From: Phreatobacter sp.
GTDB taxonomy: Bacteria; Pseudomonadota; Alphaproteobacteria; Rhizobiales; Phreatobacteraceae
Direction of reading: 5' to 3'
NCBI RefSeq assembly: GCF_027532945.1
Contig: NZ_JAPZTZ010000026.1
Span: 1-59,196, forward strand
DNA length: 59,196 nt
In this document: one piece after another, positions 43,467 to 49,862 of the stretch
Numbering within the stretch: position 1 is the stretch's first letter
How the letters are laid out: every line of letters starts with the position of its first letter
The notes under the pieces: model-generated
Database searches by the model: none
Told to the model about the DNA's origin: nothing
What the model saw: only the letters and a program-made list of their open reading frames with translations
Translations under genes and position numbers: made by a program

Positions 43467-44381
43467 TTACCGCCAGCGGCGATGCAGCCACAGCCATTGC
43501 TCGGGATGCTCGCGCACCCAGCCCTCGACGACGTCGGTCATCATCTGCATGGCGCCCTTCACGTCGATGCGGCCTTCCGCGTCGCGGGGCAGGTCGAGCG
43601 CCTCCGTCGCCTCCAGGCGGAAGCGGTTGCCGGGCAGGCGGATGACGCGCACGCCATGGACCGGGCAGTCGAATTCGCGGGCAAGGCGCGCCGCGGTGGG
43701 GTTCGCCTTGGCCGGGCGTCCGAAGAAGGTGACATCGACGCCGCGGTGAAGGTGCTGGTCGATGAGCATGCCGACATGGTTGCTGGCCTCGAGCTCGCGG
43801 GCGAGCTGGAGGACGCCGCCCCCGCCGGAGGCGACGAGCTTGCCCATGGTGCGGCCGCGGATGCGCTGGATGGCGCGGGCGACGAAGCGGTTGTTGGGCA
43901 TGCGGTAGAGCGAGGTCGTGTCCAGCCCGTGGGCCGCGGCGGCCACCGCCGGCATCTCCCAGTTGGCGAGATGGGCGGCGAAGAAGATGGCGGGCTTGCC
44001 GTCGTCGCGGAGGCGCTCGTAGAGCGGCACGTCGTCGGTGACGATGCGGCCCTGGTTCGGACGGGCGGGGTCATAGTCCCACAGGTCGTCCATGCAGGCA
44101 TATTCGAAGGACGTGCGGCCGAGATTTGCCCAGACGCCGCGCAGGATGGCGCGGATCTCGGCCTCCGGCTTATCGGGATAGGCAGCCTTCAGATTGGCAT
44201 AACCGGTGCGGTTGGCGCCGATCAGCGGGGCGAGCCGCGGCAGGATCCAGGCGCCGATGTCGCTGGCGCGGTCGGGCCCGAGCGCGCGGATGCCGGCCAT
44301 GGCGCCGAGCACCAGCATGCCGATGATCCAATCGAACGGCACCATGAGTGCCGGGACACGATGGCGAATCCAGCGGACCAA
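43467..44381 (-). CDS. lpxXL: lipid A very-long-chain acyltransferase
   Basis: LpxXL transfers a very-long-chain acyl group (27-hydroxyoctacosanoyl type in rhizobia) from AcpXL to a hydroxyl of lipid A. The 304-aa protein belongs to the HtrB/LpxL family. It has an N-terminal membrane anchor (VPFDWIIGMLVLGAMAG) and the HxxxxE catalytic motif at His137-Glu142 (HLANWE), then RMPNNRFVARAIQRIRG and LIDQHLHRGVDV. It is 10 bp downstream of adh2XL on the same strand and directly faces the acpXL operon, which fixes the identity. In well-studied rhizobia these genes lie on the same strand as acpXL. Confidence 0.88.
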   Translation of the reverse strand: MVRWIRHRVPALMVPFDWIIGMLVLGAMAGIRALGPDRASDIGAWILPRLAPLIGANRTGYANLKAAYPDKPEAEIRAILRGVWANLGRTSFEYACMDDLWDYDPARPNQGRIVTDDVPLYERLRDDGKPAIFFAAHLANWEMPAVAAAAHGLDTTSLYRMPNNRFVARAIQRIRGRTMGKLVASGGGGVLQLARELEASNHVGMLIDQHLHRGVDVTFFGRPAKANPTAARLAREFDCPVHGVRVIRLPGNRFRLEATEALDLPRDAEGRIDVKGAMQMMTDVVEGWVREHPEQWLWLHRRWR

Positions 44382-44391
44382 TGACCCGGCC

Positions 44392-45414
44392 TCAGATGTG
44401 CACGAGGATCTTGCCGAAGACCTTTCGGCTCTCCAGCCGCTCCAGGGCCTCGGCGAAGCGGGCCACCGGCAGTTCGGTGTCGATGACCGGCGAGACGCCC
44501 GCCTCGATGCGCTTCAGGCCGTCGGCAATGGCGCGGATGGGGGCGCCGAAGGAGCCGAAGATCTTGTACTGCTGCTGGAACAGCTGCATCAGGTTCATGG
44601 AGATGGTGGCGCCCGAGGTGGCGCCGCAGGTCGCGAGGCGGCCGCCGCGCCGCAGGCAGAACAGCGACTGGTTGAAAGTGTCGGCGCCGGTGTGCTCGAA
44701 GACCACGTCGACGCCCATCTTCTTGGTGATCTTGCGGACGACGCCCTCGAAGCGCTCGGTGCGGTAGTTGATCGCATGGTCGGCGCCGATGGCCAGCGCC
44801 TTGGCCGCCTTGTCGTCGTCGCCCACCGTGGTGATGACGGTGCAGCCCATGGACTTCGCCAGCTTGATGGCGATGGTGCCGATGCCTGAGCCGCCGGCCT
44901 GGACGAGGACGGTCTCGCCGGGCTCGAGGCGGCAATTGTCGATGAGCATGTGCTCGACGGTGGAATAGGTGATGGGGGCGGTGGCGGCATCGCGCAGCGA
45001 CACGCCGGCCGGCACCTTGAGCACGTGGCGGGCTTCCATGGTGACGTGCTCGCAGGCGAAGCCGTCGATGTGGAAGCCCATAATGCCCTGCACGTCGGTG
45101 CACAGGTTGTCCTGGCCACGCAGGCAGAACCGGCAGGTGCCGCAGGTCTTGGCGCCGAACATCACGACATGGTCGCCGGGGGCGAAGGCGGTGACGCCCT
45201 CGCCGATGCTCTCGATGGTGCCGGAGGCCTCGGCGCCGACGACGAGGGGCATCTTGCGCTTGGCGAAGGCCATGCCGCGGAAGCCCCAGACATCGATATG
45301 GTTCAGCGCCACGGCGGCGACGCGGATGCGCACCTCGCCCGGACCGGGGGCGGGGGCATCCTCGATCTCCTCGATGCGGAGGTCACGATCACCGTGAAGA
45401 CGCAGGGCGCGCAT
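44392..45414 (-). CDS. zinc-type medium-chain alcohol dehydrogenase of the VLCFA cluster
   Basis: The 340-aa protein corresponds to the alcohol-dehydrogenase gene (adh2XL) of rhizobial acpXL clusters. The structural-zinc loop CGTCRFCLRGQDNLC is at 91-105. The NAD(P)-binding segment is at about 155-175 (GGSGIGTIAIKLAKSMG). The usual first catalytic-zinc cysteine is replaced by NHIDVWGF at 38-45, as in the quinone-oxidoreductase branch. Its role in making 27-hydroxyoctacosanoate is not defined. It starts at 45414, divergent from acpXL across 290 bp that hold no gene and should contain promoters for both directions. Confidence 0.85.
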   Translation of the reverse strand: MRALRLHGDRDLRIEEIEDAPAPGPGEVRIRVAAVALNHIDVWGFRGMAFAKRKMPLVVGAEASGTIESIGEGVTAFAPGDHVVMFGAKTCGTCRFCLRGQDNLCTDVQGIMGFHIDGFACEHVTMEARHVLKVPAGVSLRDAATAPITYSTVEHMLIDNCRLEPGETVLVQAGGSGIGTIAIKLAKSMGCTVITTVGDDDKAAKALAIGADHAINYRTERFEGVVRKITKKMGVDVVFEHTGADTFNQSLFCLRRGGRLATCGATSGATISMNLMQLFQQQYKIFGSFGAPIRAIADGLKRIEAGVSPVIDTELPVARFAEALERLESRKVFGKILVHI

Positions 45415-45704: not shown

Positions 45705-45986
45705 ATGTCGTCCACCTTCGAAACCGTCTCGAAGATCATCTCGGAAACCTGCGACATCCCGCTGGAGAAGATCACCCCCGAGAGCCACGCGATCGACGAT
45801 CTCGGCATCGATTCGCTCGATTTCCTCGACATCGCCTTCGCCATCGACAAGGCCTTTGGCATCAAGCTGCCGCTCGAGAAGTGGACGCAGGAGGTCAACG
45901 AGGGCAAGGCGAAGACGGAGGACTACTTCGTTCTCGGCGCGCTCTGCGGCAAGATCGACGAACTGGTCGCCGCCAAGGGCGCGTGA
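45705..45986 (+). CDS. acpXL: acyl carrier protein AcpXL
   Basis: AcpXL (93 aa) carries the very-long-chain acyl chain during its elongation and delivery to lipid A. The phosphopantetheine serine is Ser37 in GIDSLDFLD. Residues 60-75 ([16 protein letters not shown]) form the insertion that sets AcpXL apart from house-keeping AcpP. AGGAG sits about nine bases upstream of ATG 45705. It is the first gene of the rightward operon and is followed by a strong hairpin, which fits high expression relative to the enzymes downstream. Confidence 0.95.
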
Positions 45987-46053
45987 TCCGGCGCGTGAAT
46001 CAGCGGGTGAATGGCCGCCGCAACGGCAGCCGTCTTCAGCTCCAGTCTGCATG

Positions 46054-46078
46054 ACCGGCCGGGCCCCCCGGCCGGTTT
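46054..46078 (+). terminator. hairpin between acpXL and fabZXL
   Basis: ACCGGCCGG (46054-46062) pairs with CCGGCCGGT (46068-46076) around a five-base loop, followed by TTTCGTCTTC. It lies in the 156-bp gap between acpXL and fabZXL, the only large gap in the operon, and should act as a partial terminator or mRNA-stabilising end for acpXL. Confidence 0.7.
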
Positions 46079-46142
46079 CGTCTTCAAAAAACACCTCACA
46101 AAAGGCCCCGCACCCCTCGCGGCGCGGCAGAGAACGCCTCCG

Positions 46143-46616
46143 ATGCGGCTCGAATATTTCCAGATGATCACCCGCGTCGTGGAGTTCGACGCCGAGAAGA
46201 AGACCCTCGTTGCCGCCGCCGACGTGCCGGCGGAGAGCCCGGTCTTCGAGGGCCATTTCCCCGGCTATCCGCTGCTGCCGGGGGTGCTGATGATCGAGGC
46301 CATGGCGCAGACCTCGGGCTGGCTCATCCTCGGCCTCAACCGGCTCACGGCGATGCCGTTCCTCGTCGGCACCAACACCACGAAGATGCGCGACTTCGTG
46401 AAGCCCTCGACGCCGCTCATGGTCCATGCCGAGCTCATCGGCGACGGCTCGGGCTATGCGGTCACCAAGGCTTTCATTACCCGTGAGGGCAAGCGCGTCG
46501 CGGAAGCCGAAATCAAGTTCGCGGTGAAGACCTTCCCCGATCCGAAATTCGCCGCGATGATCCGGGAATGGGGGGAACGCCTCCAGTTCCCGTTCGAGAA
46601 GCTGGATGCGGCCTGA
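46143..46616 (+). CDS. fabZXL: 3-hydroxyacyl-ACP dehydratase of the VLCFA cluster
   Basis: This 157-aa hot-dog dehydratase removes water from 3-hydroxyacyl-AcpXL during chain elongation. Catalytic His38 lies in FEGHFPGYPLLPGVLMIEAMAQ and Glu52 in the same stretch, the FabZ pattern. ATG 46143 is chosen because the conserved MRLEYFQMI start is there; the frame to 46011 runs through the hairpin and lacks family similarity. It is followed by fabF2XL after 9 bp. Confidence 0.9.
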   Translation: MRLEYFQMITRVVEFDAEKKTLVAAADVPAESPVFEGHFPGYPLLPGVLMIEAMAQTSGWLILGLNRLTAMPFLVGTNTTKMRDFVKPSTPLMVHAELIGDGSGYAVTKAFITREGKRVAEAEIKFAVKTFPDPKFAAMIREWGERLQFPFEKLDAA

Positions 46617-46625
46617 AGGGAGTGC

Positions 46626-47831
46626 ATGATGGCGATTGCCAGGGAACGTGAGGCCTGGATCACCGGGATCGGCCTCGTCTCGGCGCTCGGCGAGGGGCTC
46701 GACGCCCACTGGACCGCGCTCAACGGCGATCGCGACGCCTGGCTGAAGCTCGATTCGACCACCTATGCGCCCTACCAGGTCCACCCGGCCGTGCCGCTGG
46801 ACCTCGCCAAGCAGATCCCCGACCGCGGCGACCGCCGTCAGATGGAGGGCTGGCAGCGCCTCGGCACCTATGCCGCGGGCCTCGCCCTCGACAATGCCGG
46901 TGTGAAGGGCGCTGACGACATCCTCAAGCGCATGCACATGATCGTCGCGGCCGGCGGCGGAGAGCGCGATTATGCCGTCGACGGGCAGGTCCTCTCGGGC
47001 CTTGCGGGTGCCAACGAGCCCGGCAAGTTCCTCAACGAGCGGCTGATGAACGATCTGCGTCCGACGCTGTTCCTCGCCCAGCTGTCGAACCTGCTCGCCG
47101 GCAACATCTCCATCGTCCACGGCGTCGTCGGCTCCTCCCGCACCTTCATGGGCGAGGAGATGGCAGGCGTCGACGCGGTGCGCGTGGCGCTCAACCGCTG
47201 CCATGCCGGCCAGGGCGACATCTTCCTCGTCGGCGGCGCCTATTCCGCGGAGCGGCCCGACACGATCCTGTATTTCGAACTCGGCCACATGAACTGGACC
47301 AAGCCCTGGGCTCCGGTCTGGGAGCGGCCGAAGGACGGCGGCGGCACGATTCTCGGGTCGGTCGGTGCCTTCCTCGTCATCGAGGCGCGCGAACATGCCG
47401 AGGCGCGCGGCGCCACGCCCATTGCACGGCTGTCGAAGGTCTCCTCCGACCGCACCCGCCGCAAGGACGGCGATGCCGAGCATACATTGGCGGTGCAGTG
47501 GAACGAGATCTCGCCCGGCCTCATCCCCGGCGCGACCGTGGTCGTCTCAGGCGCCACCGGTGTCTCCGAGGCCGTCGCCATCGAGCGTGACATTCTCGAC
47601 CAGCGCCGCGTGCCGACGCGGGCCACCGGCTCGGTCATCGGCCACAGCGTCGAGGCGACCTTCCCGGCCAATGTTGCGCTGGCGGCCATGATGGTCCAGC
47701 GCGGCGAGGCCGTGCCGCCGGTCGGCGGATCGAAGGACGAAGCGAAGATGGCGCGCAAGGTGAAGCAGGCCGTGGTCACCTCGGTTGGCCACTGGCGCGG
47801 CGAGGGCATGGCCCTCGTCGAGGCGATCTGA
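46626..47831 (+). CDS. fabF2XL: ketosynthase-like protein lacking the catalytic cysteine (FabF2XL)
   Basis: This 401-aa protein has the thiolase/KAS fold (EAWITGIGLVSALGEGLDAHW near the start and GSVIGHSVEATF near 340). However, the nucleophile position that is Cys in active enzymes is Thr173 (VGSSRTFMG), and the first catalytic histidine (NAHGT in FabF1XL) is absent (SGATGVSEA). Only the second histidine remains. This is the pattern of a chain-length factor rather than an active condensing enzyme. It lies 10 bp before fabF1XL, so the two probably form a heterodimer. The start is ATG 46626 or the next ATG at 46629. Confidence 0.88.
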   Translation: MMAIAREREAWITGIGLVSALGEGLDAHWTALNGDRDAWLKLDSTTYAPYQVHPAVPLDLAKQIPDRGDRRQMEGWQRLGTYAAGLALDNAGVKGADDILKRMHMIVAAGGGERDYAVDGQVLSGLAGANEPGKFLNERLMNDLRPTLFLAQLSNLLAGNISIVHGVVGSSRTFMGEEMAGVDAVRVALNRCHAGQGDIFLVGGAYSAERPDTILYFELGHMNWTKPWAPVWERPKDGGGTILGSVGAFLVIEAREHAEARGATPIARLSKVSSDRTRRKDGDAEHTLAVQWNEISPGLIPGATVVVSGATGVSEAVAIERDILDQRRVPTRATGSVIGHSVEATFPANVALAAMMVQRGEAVPPVGGSKDEAKMARKVKQAVVTSVGHWRGEGMALVEAI

Positions 47832-47841
47832 GGAGGCGGAC

Positions 47842-49113
47842 ATGACCCAGATGAAGGACCGTCACGGCCGTCCCGTCGTCGTCGTCACTGGCATGGGCGT
47901 CGTCACCTCGCTCGGCCAGGGCAAGCAGGAGAACTGGGCGAAGCTGACCGCCGGCCAGTCGGGCATCCACACGATCACCCGCTTCCCCATCGAGGGCCTC
48001 AGGACCACCATCGCCGGCACGGTCGATTTCGTCCCCTTCGAGAACGCGCCCGACCTCACCACCAAGATGGCGGCGCTGGCCGGCGACGAGGCGGTGGCGG
48101 AAGCCGGCATCGCGCTTGGCGCCTTCCCCGGGCCGCTCTTCCTCGGCATGCCGCCGGTGGAGCTGGAATGGCCGCAGCGCCAGGCCATTGCTGCGGCCTC
48201 CGGCAAGACCGCCGACATCACATACACGGACATTCTGAAGGGCGCGGCGGCGAAGGATTTCTCCGCCATGCAGACGCGCTTCCTGTTCGGCTCGGTCTCC
48301 GACCAGCTGGCCGACCGCTTCGGCACCAAGGGCGCGCCGATCTCGATCTCCACCGCCTGCGCCACCGGCGCAACCGCCATCCAGCTCGCCGTCGAGGCCA
48401 TCCGCCGCGGCGAGACCGGGGCGGCGCTGGTGGTCAGCGCCGACGGCTCGGCCAACCAGGAATCGCTGGTGCGCTTCTCGCTGCTCTCGGCGCTCTCCAC
48501 CCGCAACGATGATCCGACCGGCGCGGCCCGGCCCTTCTCCAAGGACCGTGACGGCTTCGTCATGGCCGAGGGCGCCGGCGCGCTGGTGCTGGAATCCTAC
48601 GAGCACGCCAAGGCGCGCGGCGCCACCATCCTCGGCGTTGTCGAGGGCTGCGGCGAGATGGCCGACAGCTTCCACCGCACCCGCTCCAGCCCGGACGGCG
48701 CGCCGATCATCGGCTGCATCCAGAACGCGCTCGAGGATGCCGGCGTGACGCCTGCCGACGTGCAGTATGTCAACGCCCATGGCACCTCGACGCCCGAGAA
48801 CGACAAGATGGAATATGTCGGCCTCGCCGCCGTCTTCGGCGAACATCTCGCCGGCATCGCGGTGTCGTCGAACAAGTCGATGATCGGCCACACGCTGTCG
48901 GCCGCCGGCGCCATCGAGGCGGTGTTCACGCTGATGACGATCAACAGCGGCGTCATCCCGCCGACCATCAATCACACGGAAGCCGACCCGGCGATCAAGC
49001 TCGACCTGGTGCCGAACACGGCGCGCAAGGCCAAGGTGACGCGGGCCATCTCCAGTTCCTTCGGCTTCGGCGGGCAGAATGTCTGCCTCGTTCTCGCCGC
49101 GGAGCCGACTTGA
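47842..49113 (+). CDS. fabF1XL: beta-ketoacyl-ACP synthase II, catalytic (FabF1XL)
   Basis: This 423-aa KAS II condenses malonyl-ACP with acyl-AcpXL. All three catalytic residues are present: Cys173 (STACATG), His313 (NAHGTST) and His350 (MIGHTLSA). ATG 47842 has AGGAGG just upstream and overlaps no other gene; the frame to 47785 lies inside fabF2XL. Its TGA overlaps the fabG ATG by one base. It is the catalytic partner for the cysteine-less FabF2XL in building the C28 chain. Confidence 0.92.
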   Translation: MTQMKDRHGRPVVVVTGMGVVTSLGQGKQENWAKLTAGQSGIHTITRFPIEGLRTTIAGTVDFVPFENAPDLTTKMAALAGDEAVAEAGIALGAFPGPLFLGMPPVELEWPQRQAIAAASGKTADITYTDILKGAAAKDFSAMQTRFLFGSVSDQLADRFGTKGAPISISTACATGATAIQLAVEAIRRGETGAALVVSADGSANQESLVRFSLLSALSTRNDDPTGAARPFSKDRDGFVMAEGAGALVLESYEHAKARGATILGVVEGCGEMADSFHRTRSSPDGAPIIGCIQNALEDAGVTPADVQYVNAHGTSTPENDKMEYVGLAAVFGEHLAGIAVSSNKSMIGHTLSAAGAIEAVFTLMTINSGVIPPTINHTEADPAIKLDLVPNTARKAKVTRAISSSFGFGGQNVCLVLAAEPT

Positions 49114-49862
49114 TGGGACGCGTCCTCGTCACCGGCGGCGCCAAGGGCATGGGCGCCGCTATCGTCCGGGCGGTGGTGGCCGCCGGCCATGACGTCACCT
49201 TCACGGTGCGCTCCTCGGGCGATGCGGCCAATGCCCTTGTCGCCGAGCTCAAGGCGGCTCATCCGGACCGCGACGTGGCGGTGGCGACCCTCGACCTTGC
49301 CGACAAGGCGGCGGTCGATGCCTTCTGCGCCGAGCTCGAGAAGAGCGAGGCGCTCTATGGCCTCGTCCATAATGCCGGCCAGCCCTATGACCAGCTCGCC
49401 GCGGTCATGGACCAGGCCAAGGCCGAGGCGGTCATGCAGATCAACTTCTTCGCCTTCACGCGGCTGGTGAACGCCGCGGTGCGGCCGATGATGCGGGCCC
49501 GCACCGGCCGTATCGTTGCCATCGGCTCGGTGACGGCGGAGCGCTCCAACCAGGGCAATGCCGCCTATGGCGCCTCCAAGGCGGCGCTTGCGGCCTATTG
49601 CCGGACGCTGGCCATCGAGAGCGCCAAACGCGGCGTGTCGGTCAATGTCGTGGCGCCGGGCTTCGTCGACACCGACATGATGGCGAAATATGCCGACTAC
49701 CGCGAGACGATGGAGAAGCAGATCCCCGCTGGCCGCTTCGCGCGGCCTGAGGAGATCGGCGGCCTTGTCGCCTATCTCCTGTCGCCGCTCGCCGGCTACC
49801 TGACGGGCGCGACCATCAGCATGGACGGAGGCCTGACCGCCTCGATGGGTCTGCAACGCTGA
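49113..49862 (+). CDS. 3-oxoacyl-ACP reductase (FabG-like SDR)
   Basis: This short-chain dehydrogenase is 249 aa. The NADP loop TGGAKGMG is near residues 7-14. Catalytic Tyr and Lys lie in AAYGASKAALAAY (about 150-162), and the C-terminal YLTGATISMDGGLTASMG is typical of FabG. It starts one base into the fabF1XL stop, so it belongs to the very-long-chain operon and would reduce 3-ketoacyl-AcpXL. With it the operon holds condensation, keto-reduction and dehydration; no dedicated enoyl reductase is seen, unless the divergent dehydrogenase serves as one. Confidence 0.88.
   Translation: MGRVLVTGGAKGMGAAIVRAVVAAGHDVTFTVRSSGDAANALVAELKAAHPDRDVAVATLDLADKAAVDAFCAELEKSEALYGLVHNAGQPYDQLAAVMDQAKAEAVMQINFFAFTRLVNAAVRPMMRARTGRIVAIGSVTAERSNQGNAAYGASKAALAAYCRTLAIESAKRGVSVNVVAPGFVDTDMMAKYADYRETMEKQIPAGRFARPEEIGGLVAYLLSPLAGYLTGATISMDGGLTASMGLQR

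What the first reader, a model, noticed from the sequence alone, without database searches (positions are those of the whole stretch)
46626..49113. Ketosynthase pair in the lipid A VLCFA operon looks like a KS/chain-length-factor heterodimer
FabF1XL keeps Cys173, His313 and His350. FabF2XL has Thr173 in place of the cysteine and has lost the first histidine, keeping only the second. The same arrangement (catalytic KS-alpha plus Cys-less KS-beta) sets chain length in type II polyketide synthases. Here the pair could measure a C26-C28 chain. The residue replacements are seen directly; the heterodimer and the ruler function are inference from polyketide precedents.
Basis: partly seen in the sequence, partly recalled or inferred. 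Interest (0 to 1): 0.72.

Follow-up and report, generated by a model that had tools for sequence, protein, structure and literature searches.

The report
Catalytically dead partner of fatty-acid elongase
Two neighbouring genes that build the extra-long fatty acid of bacterial lipid A look like a working chain-extending enzyme and a dead look-alike that probably pairs with it and shapes its tunnel, as in polyketide antibiotics, which would give a testable answer to how the chain length is set.

Summary
The KS pair is real and the KS/chain-length-factor reading is well supported as a working model, but one residue is misread. FabF1XL keeps Cys173, His313, Lys345 and His350. Glu is there in 152 of 152 distinct orthologue frames; none has the first His or the Lys; 141 keep the second His. 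The pair is obligate: the same 40 of 150 genomes of the order exceed both cut-offs, and FabF1XL follows FabF2XL in 149 of 152. Conservation is split as in polyketide KSbeta/KSalpha: FabF2XL conserves the acyl-pocket wall, FabF1XL the catalytic loops. A fused AlphaFold2 model of one orthologous pair has pTM 0.93, and the one two-domain match among 50 listed PDB hits is the PfaC KS-CLF. A published Agrobacterium fabF2XL mutant makes no lipid A VLCFA. Phylogeny does not show descent from polyketide CLFs. Heterodimer likely; ruler function plausible, untested.

The parts
46626..47831 (+). fabF2XL: KS-fold protein without Cys, first His and Lys; CLF-like partner (401 aa)
   Evidence: NF005084 561 bits, cut-off 320; PF00109 is the only Pfam hit, no C-terminal KS domain hit; Glu178/Gly309/Gly335/His340
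47842..49113 (+). fabF1XL: catalytic ketosynthase, Cys173-His313-Lys345-His350 (423 aa)
   Evidence: NF005076 708 bits, cut-off 629; TIGR03150 fabF 374 bits, below its cut-off 493.75; residues
47157..47159 (+). codon of Glu178 of FabF2XL, in the active-site Cys column; Glu in 152 of 152 distinct frames
48358..48360 (+). codon of Cys173 of FabF1XL, the nucleophile
46950..46982 (+). FabF2XL residues 109-119 (AGGGERDYAVD), first pocket-wall stretch; Arg114 and Asp119 in 152 of 152
47055..47105 (+). FabF2XL residues 144-160 (LRPTLFLAQLSNLLAGN), the most conserved stretch of the protein, partly low-confidence in the monomer model
45705..45986 (+). acpXL, dedicated acyl carrier protein
   Evidence: NF005079 168.7 bits, cut-off 83
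46011..46616 (+). fabZXL, 3-hydroxyacyl-ACP dehydratase (start codon uncertain, likely inside this frame)
   Evidence: PF07977 69.2 bits; below the NCBIfam fabZ cut-offs
49110..49862 (+). FabG-like SDR directly after fabF1XL (start overlaps its stop), likely dedicated ketoreductase
   Evidence: PF13561 170 bits; below the cut-offs of the 25 NCBIfam models listed; same place in 14 of 80 named loci, three of them Phreatobacter-like
44392..45414 (-). adh (zinc-type medium-chain dehydrogenase; adh2XL by synteny)
   Evidence: PF00107, PF08240
43467..44381 (-). lpxXL, lipid A VLCFA acyltransferase
   Evidence: NF005120 417.8 bits, cut-off 273

Best explanation
FabF2XL is a catalytically dead ketosynthase subunit that forms a heterodimer with the catalytic FabF1XL, so that FabF1XL does all condensations on AcpXL while FabF2XL gives the conserved wall of the shared acyl tunnel. 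Shown: loss of Cys, first His and Lys in every distinct orthologue frame examined, obligate pairing, and opposite conservation of wall and catalytic loops. Predicted by AlphaFold2 for one orthologue: KS-CLF-type arrangement. Shown in print for Agrobacterium: FabF2XL is needed for any lipid A VLCFA. Inferred: that FabF1XL is inactive or misfolded without it, and that the FabF2XL wall lets the chain grow past C18 and stop near C26-C30. Confidence: heterodimer about 0.85, wall function about 0.7, chain-length ruler about 0.45.
For: (1) Catalytic residues: Cys column Glu in 152/152 FabF2XL, first His and Lys in 0/152; FabF1XL Cys 148/148, the other three 147/148 with one gap in a cut frame. (2) NF005084 and NF005076 exceed their cut-offs in the same 40 of 150 order genomes and in none of the other 110 (sets compared). 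(3) FabF1XL follows on the same strand in 149 of 152 distinct FabF2XL frames (152 of 155 with repeats); of the three misses, L158 ends with its contig, L054 shows the first part of FabF1XL before its contig ends, and L164 is a true exception. Second pairs in L162 and L163 hold both genes. (4) Mean column identity at the pocket-wall segment 129-145 is 0.91 in FabF2XL (whole protein 0.51) but 0.36 in FabF1XL (whole 0.62); first-His loop 0.49 against 0.89. Controls: KSbeta 0.92 (whole 0.65) and 0.69; KSalpha 0.73 (whole 0.75) and 0.96; FabF 0.66 (whole 0.61) and 0.89. (5) The FabF2XL monomer model (pLDDT 87.8) falls below 50 at 112-114 and 144-154, in the conserved wall; in the fused model of orthologue L026 the 10-residue blocks there average 75-90, pTM is 0.93, and the only stretch below 50 is the linker. 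(6) Foldseek on the fused model: single KS chains TMq 0.42-0.44, PfaC KS-CLF (6riw) 0.69 over 982 columns, rmsd 7.2. (7) A. fabrum fabF2XL mutant has no VLCFA in lipid A, partly restored by a plasmid with fabF2XL alone.
Against: The fused model uses a read-through linker and another species. Conservation does not fit in every part: the catalytic His loops of FabF2XL are about as conserved as its whole (0.49 and 0.47 against 0.51), not below it; its GFGG stretch (0.67) is above; and the KSalpha wall (0.73) is hardly below its whole (0.75), so the very low FabF1XL wall has no exact control. The wall is almost invariant although A. fabrum makes mainly C28 with some C30 and Bradyrhizobium C26, so these residues cannot explain the differences. 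The A. fabrum insertion may be polar on the co-transcribed fabF1XL, and complementation was partial. FabF2XL differs from actinobacterial KSbeta at each catalytic column: Glu for Gln, Gly for Asp, Gly for Lys, His for Arg. One unlinked second copy exists (L164).
Confidence: 0.72

Rival explanations
1. FabF1XL works as an ordinary homodimer; FabF2XL is a separate scaffold, chaperone or ACP-binding regulator of the VLCFA enzymes.
For: No direct contact has been measured; AlphaFold2 has no homodimer control here. FabF1XL keeps every catalytic residue.
Against: In FabF1XL the stretches that line the pocket in FabF are poorly conserved (identity 0.27 at 104-118 and 0.36 at 129-145, whole 0.62) while FabF2XL keeps them (0.67 and 0.91, whole 0.51), as KSbeta does (0.78 and 0.92, whole 0.65). 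Obligate pairing.
Confidence: 0.13
2. FabF2XL is a KSQ-like malonyl-AcpXL decarboxylase that supplies starter or enolate units.
For: An acidic or amide residue in the Cys column recalls KSQ and CLF proteins (Gln in 7 of 9 KSbeta); His340 is mostly kept (141/152).
Against: No frame has the first His or the Lys; decarboxylation in KS enzymes is understood to need the His pair (recalled). VLCFA is thought to start from a ready acyl-ACP rather than acetate (recalled).
Confidence: 0.06
3. FabF2XL is a second active elongase with another nucleophile (Glu178 or Thr173), so the two act one after the other on different chain lengths.
For: fabF2XL is needed in A. fabrum and both genes are presumed essential in Bradyrhizobium ORS278; Glu178 is invariant.
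Against: Loss of first His and Lys and catalytic His loops no better conserved than the rest of the protein leave no known condensation machinery.
Confidence: 0.03
4. FabF2XL is a true KSbeta/CLF by descent, sharing an ancestor with the polyketide KSbeta (a question of origin, compatible with the best explanation).
For: Best tree puts FabF2XL and KSbeta on one side of a branch (82/88); hhalign score 142 to one CLF against 122 to the FabF1XL profile; GEExAG in most FabF2XL rows shown against [GS][DE]QAGG in the three KSbeta shown.
Against: Support is not significant; FabF2XL+FabF1XL as one clade is not rejected (p-AU 0.485), nor FabF2XL+FabF (0.433). Long branches.
Confidence: 0.3

Closest known systems
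Type II polyketide KS/CLF (KSalpha/KSbeta), e.g. actinorhodin 1TQY
   Same: Adjacent pair of a catalytic and a Cys-less KS-fold subunit; similar split of conservation; act CLF is a structural match of FabF2XL (1tqy_B, TMq 0.77, rank 29, behind many FabF chains).
   Different: Gln at the Cys column in 7 of 9 KSbeta here against Glu in FabF2XL; these KSbeta keep Lys335 and have Asp303/Arg340; FabF2XL lies before its partner, KSbeta after it in the 9 loci fetched; works with FabZ and AcpXL on reduced chains.
PfaC KS-CLF of PUFA synthases (PDB 6riw)
   Same: KS-CLF of a fatty acid pathway; the only two-domain match among the 50 listed for the fused model, TMq 0.69.
   Different: One chain of a megasynthase; 13% identity in the alignment, rmsd 7.2.
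ApeO-ApeC of aryl polyenes; ishigamide KS/CLF (6kxd)
   Same: Heterodimeric KS-CLF working with FAS-like partners (passages of PMC8358021); 6kxd_A matches FabF1XL (1.1e-54).
   Different: [quoted passage not shown] FabF2XL is full length.
AmcF-AmcG of cispentacin synthesis (PMC10698177)
   Same: Heterodimer of a KS and a partner without known functional motifs, modelled there by ColabFold too (passages); the AmcF model matches FabF2XL (54 bits) and FabF1XL (229.8 bits), both below its cut-off 325.
   Different: One C2 elongation plus cyclisation, no long chain.
FabF2XL of Rhizobium, Agrobacterium and Bradyrhizobium
   Same: Same family by name and synteny (NF005084); needed for VLCFA in A. fabrum.
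   Different: PMC11901934 calls it a 3-oxoacyl-ACP synthase and holds neither 'ketosynthase' nor 'chain length factor'; the PMC5613085 passages seen call it an elongation protein.

Membership tests
NF005084 (PRK06519, FabF2XL family) | Score over curated cut-off 320 | tested here: met
   561 bits
NF005076 (PRK06501, FabF1XL family) | Score over curated cut-off 629 | tested here: met
   708 bits
Active ketosynthase (FabF/KAS II) for FabF2XL | Cys-His-His-Lys active site | tested here: not met
   Glu178, Gly309, Gly335, His340
FabF (TIGR03150) for FabF1XL | Score over cut-off 493.75 | tested here: not met
   374 bits, although Cys173, His313, Lys345 and His350 are kept
Type II PKS KSbeta/CLF | KS-fold subunit without the nucleophilic Cys | tested here: met
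   152 of 152 distinct frames; fold match
Type II PKS KSbeta/CLF | Gln in the Cys position | tested here: not met
   Glu in 152 of 152; Gln in 7 of 9 KSbeta references, Gly and His in one each
Type II PKS KSbeta/CLF | Encoded next to a catalytic KSalpha partner | tested here: met
   149 of 152 distinct frames; order of the two genes is reversed
Type II PKS KSbeta/CLF | Same clade in the KS tree | tested here: inconclusive
   82/88 not significant, alternatives not rejected
Type II PKS KSbeta/CLF | Forms a heterodimer with its KS | tested here: inconclusive
   Fused AlphaFold2 model of L026, pTM 0.93, no homodimer control
Type II PKS KSbeta/CLF | Sets chain length | not testable with these tools
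   Needs wall mutants and product analysis

The most novel reading that the evidence does not exclude
An envelope-lipid fatty acid synthase that uses a KS/CLF heterodimer as a ruler: the nearly fixed FabF2XL wall (Arg114, Arg145-Pro146-Thr147-Leu148-Phe149) lines an extended tunnel in FabF1XL and sets the C26-C30 length of saturated lipid A VLCFAs, evolved apart from polyketide CLFs.
Probability: 0.4. Interest if true: 0.75.

Novelty: new variant of a known kind. Interest (0 to 1): 0.6.

Why it matters
The lipid A VLCFA of rhizobia and their relatives matters for membrane strength, symbiosis and stress survival, and in the passages read I met no account of how its length is set. If FabF2XL is a dead partner, the annotation 'beta-ketoacyl-ACP synthase' (NF005084) misleads, assays of either protein alone may well fail, and chain length becomes testable by co-purification. 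It would bring the KS/CLF principle, known from polyketides, aryl polyenes and PUFA synthases, to a dissociated, fully reducing fatty acid pathway found across families of Alphaproteobacteria.

Tried and rejected
Cys-to-Thr replacement: rejected, HMMER, hhalign and MAFFT give Glu178. Orthologues with an intact triad: none among 152 distinct frames. A distant candidate outside the class (G227, 91 bits): it scores 310.6 with the FabF1XL profile and 88.9 with FabF2XL and has Cys, His, Lys and His, so it is an ordinary FabF. Natural FabF2XL-FabF1XL fusion: not seen; all 62 same-frame pairs listed have at least one stop between. First column printout used E. coli numbers off by five; redone. The F400 column of FabF2XL reads His in 125 of 152 in one alignment and Trp in 38 of 62 in another; this end is hard to align and I claim nothing on single residues there. 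First tree held three antisense frames taken as FabF by mistake; discarded. Origin of FabF2XL: unresolved. Monomer fold search does not tell CLF from FabF. KS/CLF for this operon in print (open-licence PMC papers only): no paper holds both acpXL and 'chain length factor'; of 13 papers listed the 8 that hold acpXL and lpxXL hold neither 'ketosynthase' nor 'chain length factor'; listings (titles and abstract starts) show none. Subscription papers are mostly not held; the S. meliloti mutant study (10.1074/jbc.M111.236356) is not.

Rows dropped: one search left out one short FabF2XL piece (L160) and two short FabF1XL pieces (L060, L166), then removed 3 duplicate FabF2XL (155 to 152) and 3 duplicate FabF1XL (151 to 148). 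One search used 93 of 152 and 74 of 148; one search used 62 and 39 (window rows dropped as redundant), and its script stopped with an error after the numbers cited were printed. The tree used 20 FabF2XL and 20 FabF1XL, 7 of 9 KSalpha and KSbeta each, 8 FabF (two more, L183 and L191, missed my filter) and no ApeC. One search aligned 35 of the 62 same-frame pairs. A1 and A2 hold 23 rows each: the window plus 22 of the 29 other order loci L005-L034.
Full report
What is there. The window is contig C9 of a 4.13 Mb draft genome in 35 contigs, close to Phreatobacter MAGs (named loci L035 and L037 at 93% and 92% over FabF2XL). The + strand carries acpXL (45705-45986), fabZXL (frame 46011-46616), fabF2XL (46626-47831), fabF1XL (47842-49113) and a FabG-like SDR (49110-49862); adh and lpxXL lie upstream on the - strand. 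Both KS genes are intact and exceed the cut-offs of their own NCBIfam models, NF005084 and NF005076, both named beta-ketoacyl-ACP synthase.

The residues. FabF1XL has Cys173, His313, Lys345 and His350. HMMER against solved FabF, hhalign against a Streptomyces CLF and FabF1XL, and a MAFFT alignment of 152 distinct FabF2XL frames, 148 FabF1XL and 14 reference KS all put Glu178 in the Cys column. Over the 152 FabF2XL: Glu 152; first-His column Gly 139, no His; Lys column Gly 111, Ala 23, no Lys; second His 141. FabF1XL: Cys 148/148, the other three residues 147/148 with one gap (a cut frame, L075). So FabF2XL lacks the catalytic set throughout this sample, and a Glu, not a Thr, holds the place of the nucleophile.

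Obligate pair. In 150 genomes of the order, NF005084 and NF005076 each exceed their cut-off in 40, and the two lists name the same 40. In 387 genomes of the class 20 exceed the FabF2XL cut-off, 16 of them outside the order; in 397 of the phylum 44 do, none outside the class; FabF1XL was not searched as a family in those two sets. In 80 of 80 named loci FabF1XL, whole or cut by a contig end, lies after FabF2XL; acpXL and fabZXL are found in 79 each, lpxXL in 70, adh in 40. Of 152 distinct FabF2XL frames 149 have FabF1XL next downstream (152 of 155 with repeats). Of the misses, L158 and L054 run into contig ends, L054 with the first part of FabF1XL visible; the third (L164) is a second copy in a draft genome whose second FabF1XL lies on another contig. 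In L162 and L163 a second pair with both genes lies in the same cluster, and in the tree the second FabF2XL and FabF1XL of L162 both group near those of L029 and L034.

Opposite conservation. With E. coli FabF numbers, the stretches around Ile108 and Phe133 border the acyl pocket: Ile108 and Phe202 are named as pocket gating residues in PMC7138838 (passage); that Phe133 and its neighbours reach the partner subunit at the dimer interface is recalled. Mean entropy at 129-145 is 0.19 bits in FabF2XL and 2.13 in FabF1XL; at the first-His loop 1.55 and 0.30 (93 and 74 sequences). With controls (62 FabF2XL, 39 FabF1XL, 26 FabF, 9 KSalpha, 9 KSbeta), identity at 129-145 is 0.91, 0.36, 0.66, 0.73, 0.92 (whole proteins 0.51, 0.62, 0.61, 0.75, 0.65), and at the first-His loop 0.49, 0.89, 0.89, 0.96, 0.69. 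FabF2XL thus behaves like KSbeta. FabF1XL goes further than KSalpha: its wall is far below its own average, that of KSalpha only about at its average. Not all fits: the His loops of FabF2XL are near, not far below, its average, and its GFGG stretch (0.67) is above it. In FabF2XL the wall has changed character: FabF Phe132 is Thr (152/152), Phe133 Leu (149/152), Ile108 Gly (142/152), Leu111 Arg (152/152). The FabF1XL alignment in this stretch is uncertain.

Structure. The window FabF2XL alone models as a KS fold (pLDDT 87.8, pTM 0.87), but residues 112-114 and 144-154, within the most conserved part, fall below 50. To model a pair I used orthologue L026, where both genes share a frame, with 34 other such pairs as alignment. 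The 858-residue chain gives pLDDT 88.6 and pTM 0.93, the only stretch below 50 is the linker (407-432), and the blocks at the wall average 75-90. Foldseek finds single KS chains at TMq 0.42-0.44 and PfaC KS-CLF (6riw) at 0.69 over 982 columns with rmsd 7.2, so the two halves seem packed as in a KS-CLF. Limits: no homodimer control, a forced single chain, another species, and a different alignment depth.

Function. In Agrobacterium fabrum an insertion in fabF2XL removes all VLCFA from lipid A, and a plasmid with fabF2XL alone restores it in part (section 2.2 of PMC11901934 read; construction in passages). The gene is co-transcribed with fabF1XL there, so part of the effect may be polar. In Bradyrhizobium ORS278 mutants of fabF1XL or fabF2XL could not be obtained (passages of PMC5613085). 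Best model: FabF1XL condenses malonyl units onto an acyl chain handed over by AcpXL; FabF2XL completes the fold and supplies the tunnel wall that lets the chain pass C18. Whether it also stops the chain at C26-C30 is open: the wall hardly varies while products range from C26 to C30, which fits a ruler of fixed size with a loose stop, or no ruler at all.

Kinship. FabF2XL is one clade (100/100). The best tree joins it with actinobacterial KSbeta (82/88, not significant); FabF2XL with FabF1XL (p-AU 0.485) or with FabF (0.433) is not rejected. I therefore say 'works like a KS/CLF' and do not file FabF2XL as a KSbeta: the Gln at the active site, usual in the KSbeta fetched, was tested and not met.

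In print. In the open-licence library no paper holds both acpXL and 'chain length factor', and the 8 papers with acpXL and lpxXL listed hold neither 'ketosynthase' nor 'chain length factor'. Subscription papers could not be searched.

Verdict. A sound lead with one wrong residue. New variant of a known kind; interest 0.6.

Noticed in passing
window 49110-49862: A FabG-like SDR follows fabF1XL with overlapping start; 14 of 80 named loci, three of them Phreatobacter-like, have a relative in the same place, so some clusters seem to carry their own ketoreductase.
   Followed up: partly
window 43467-45414: adh and lpxXL lie upstream on the - strand here and in the relatives L035-L037, whereas PMC11901934 says the cluster's genes always share one direction.
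   Followed up: partly
L162 2980-5520 and 12683-15143; L163 2116-4656 and 10728-13000 (reverse-strand numbering): Two FabF2XL-FabF1XL pairs in one cluster, the second divergent and in L163 with a short FabF2XL frame; it might make a second chain length.
   Followed up: partly
L164, L165: A draft genome (G043) whose second FabF2XL and second FabF1XL lie on different contigs, each without the other beside it.
   Followed up: partly
L160 1357-2687: FabF2XL split over two overlapping frames: frameshift or assembly error.
   Followed up: no
L112 7167-8086: A gap of about 900 nt between FabF2XL and FabF1XL, the largest seen; content not examined.
   Followed up: no
L049, L056, L060, L064, L067, L112: The cluster occurs in MAGs titled Acetobacteraceae, Rhodopila or Asaia, outside Hyphomicrobiales if the labels are right.
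   Followed up: no
PDB 9s5h, 9s5i: Entries with two different KS chains (B and C) that the FabF2XL profile matches (7.2e-21 and 1.6e-11); possibly another KS heterodimer, identity not found.
   Followed up: no
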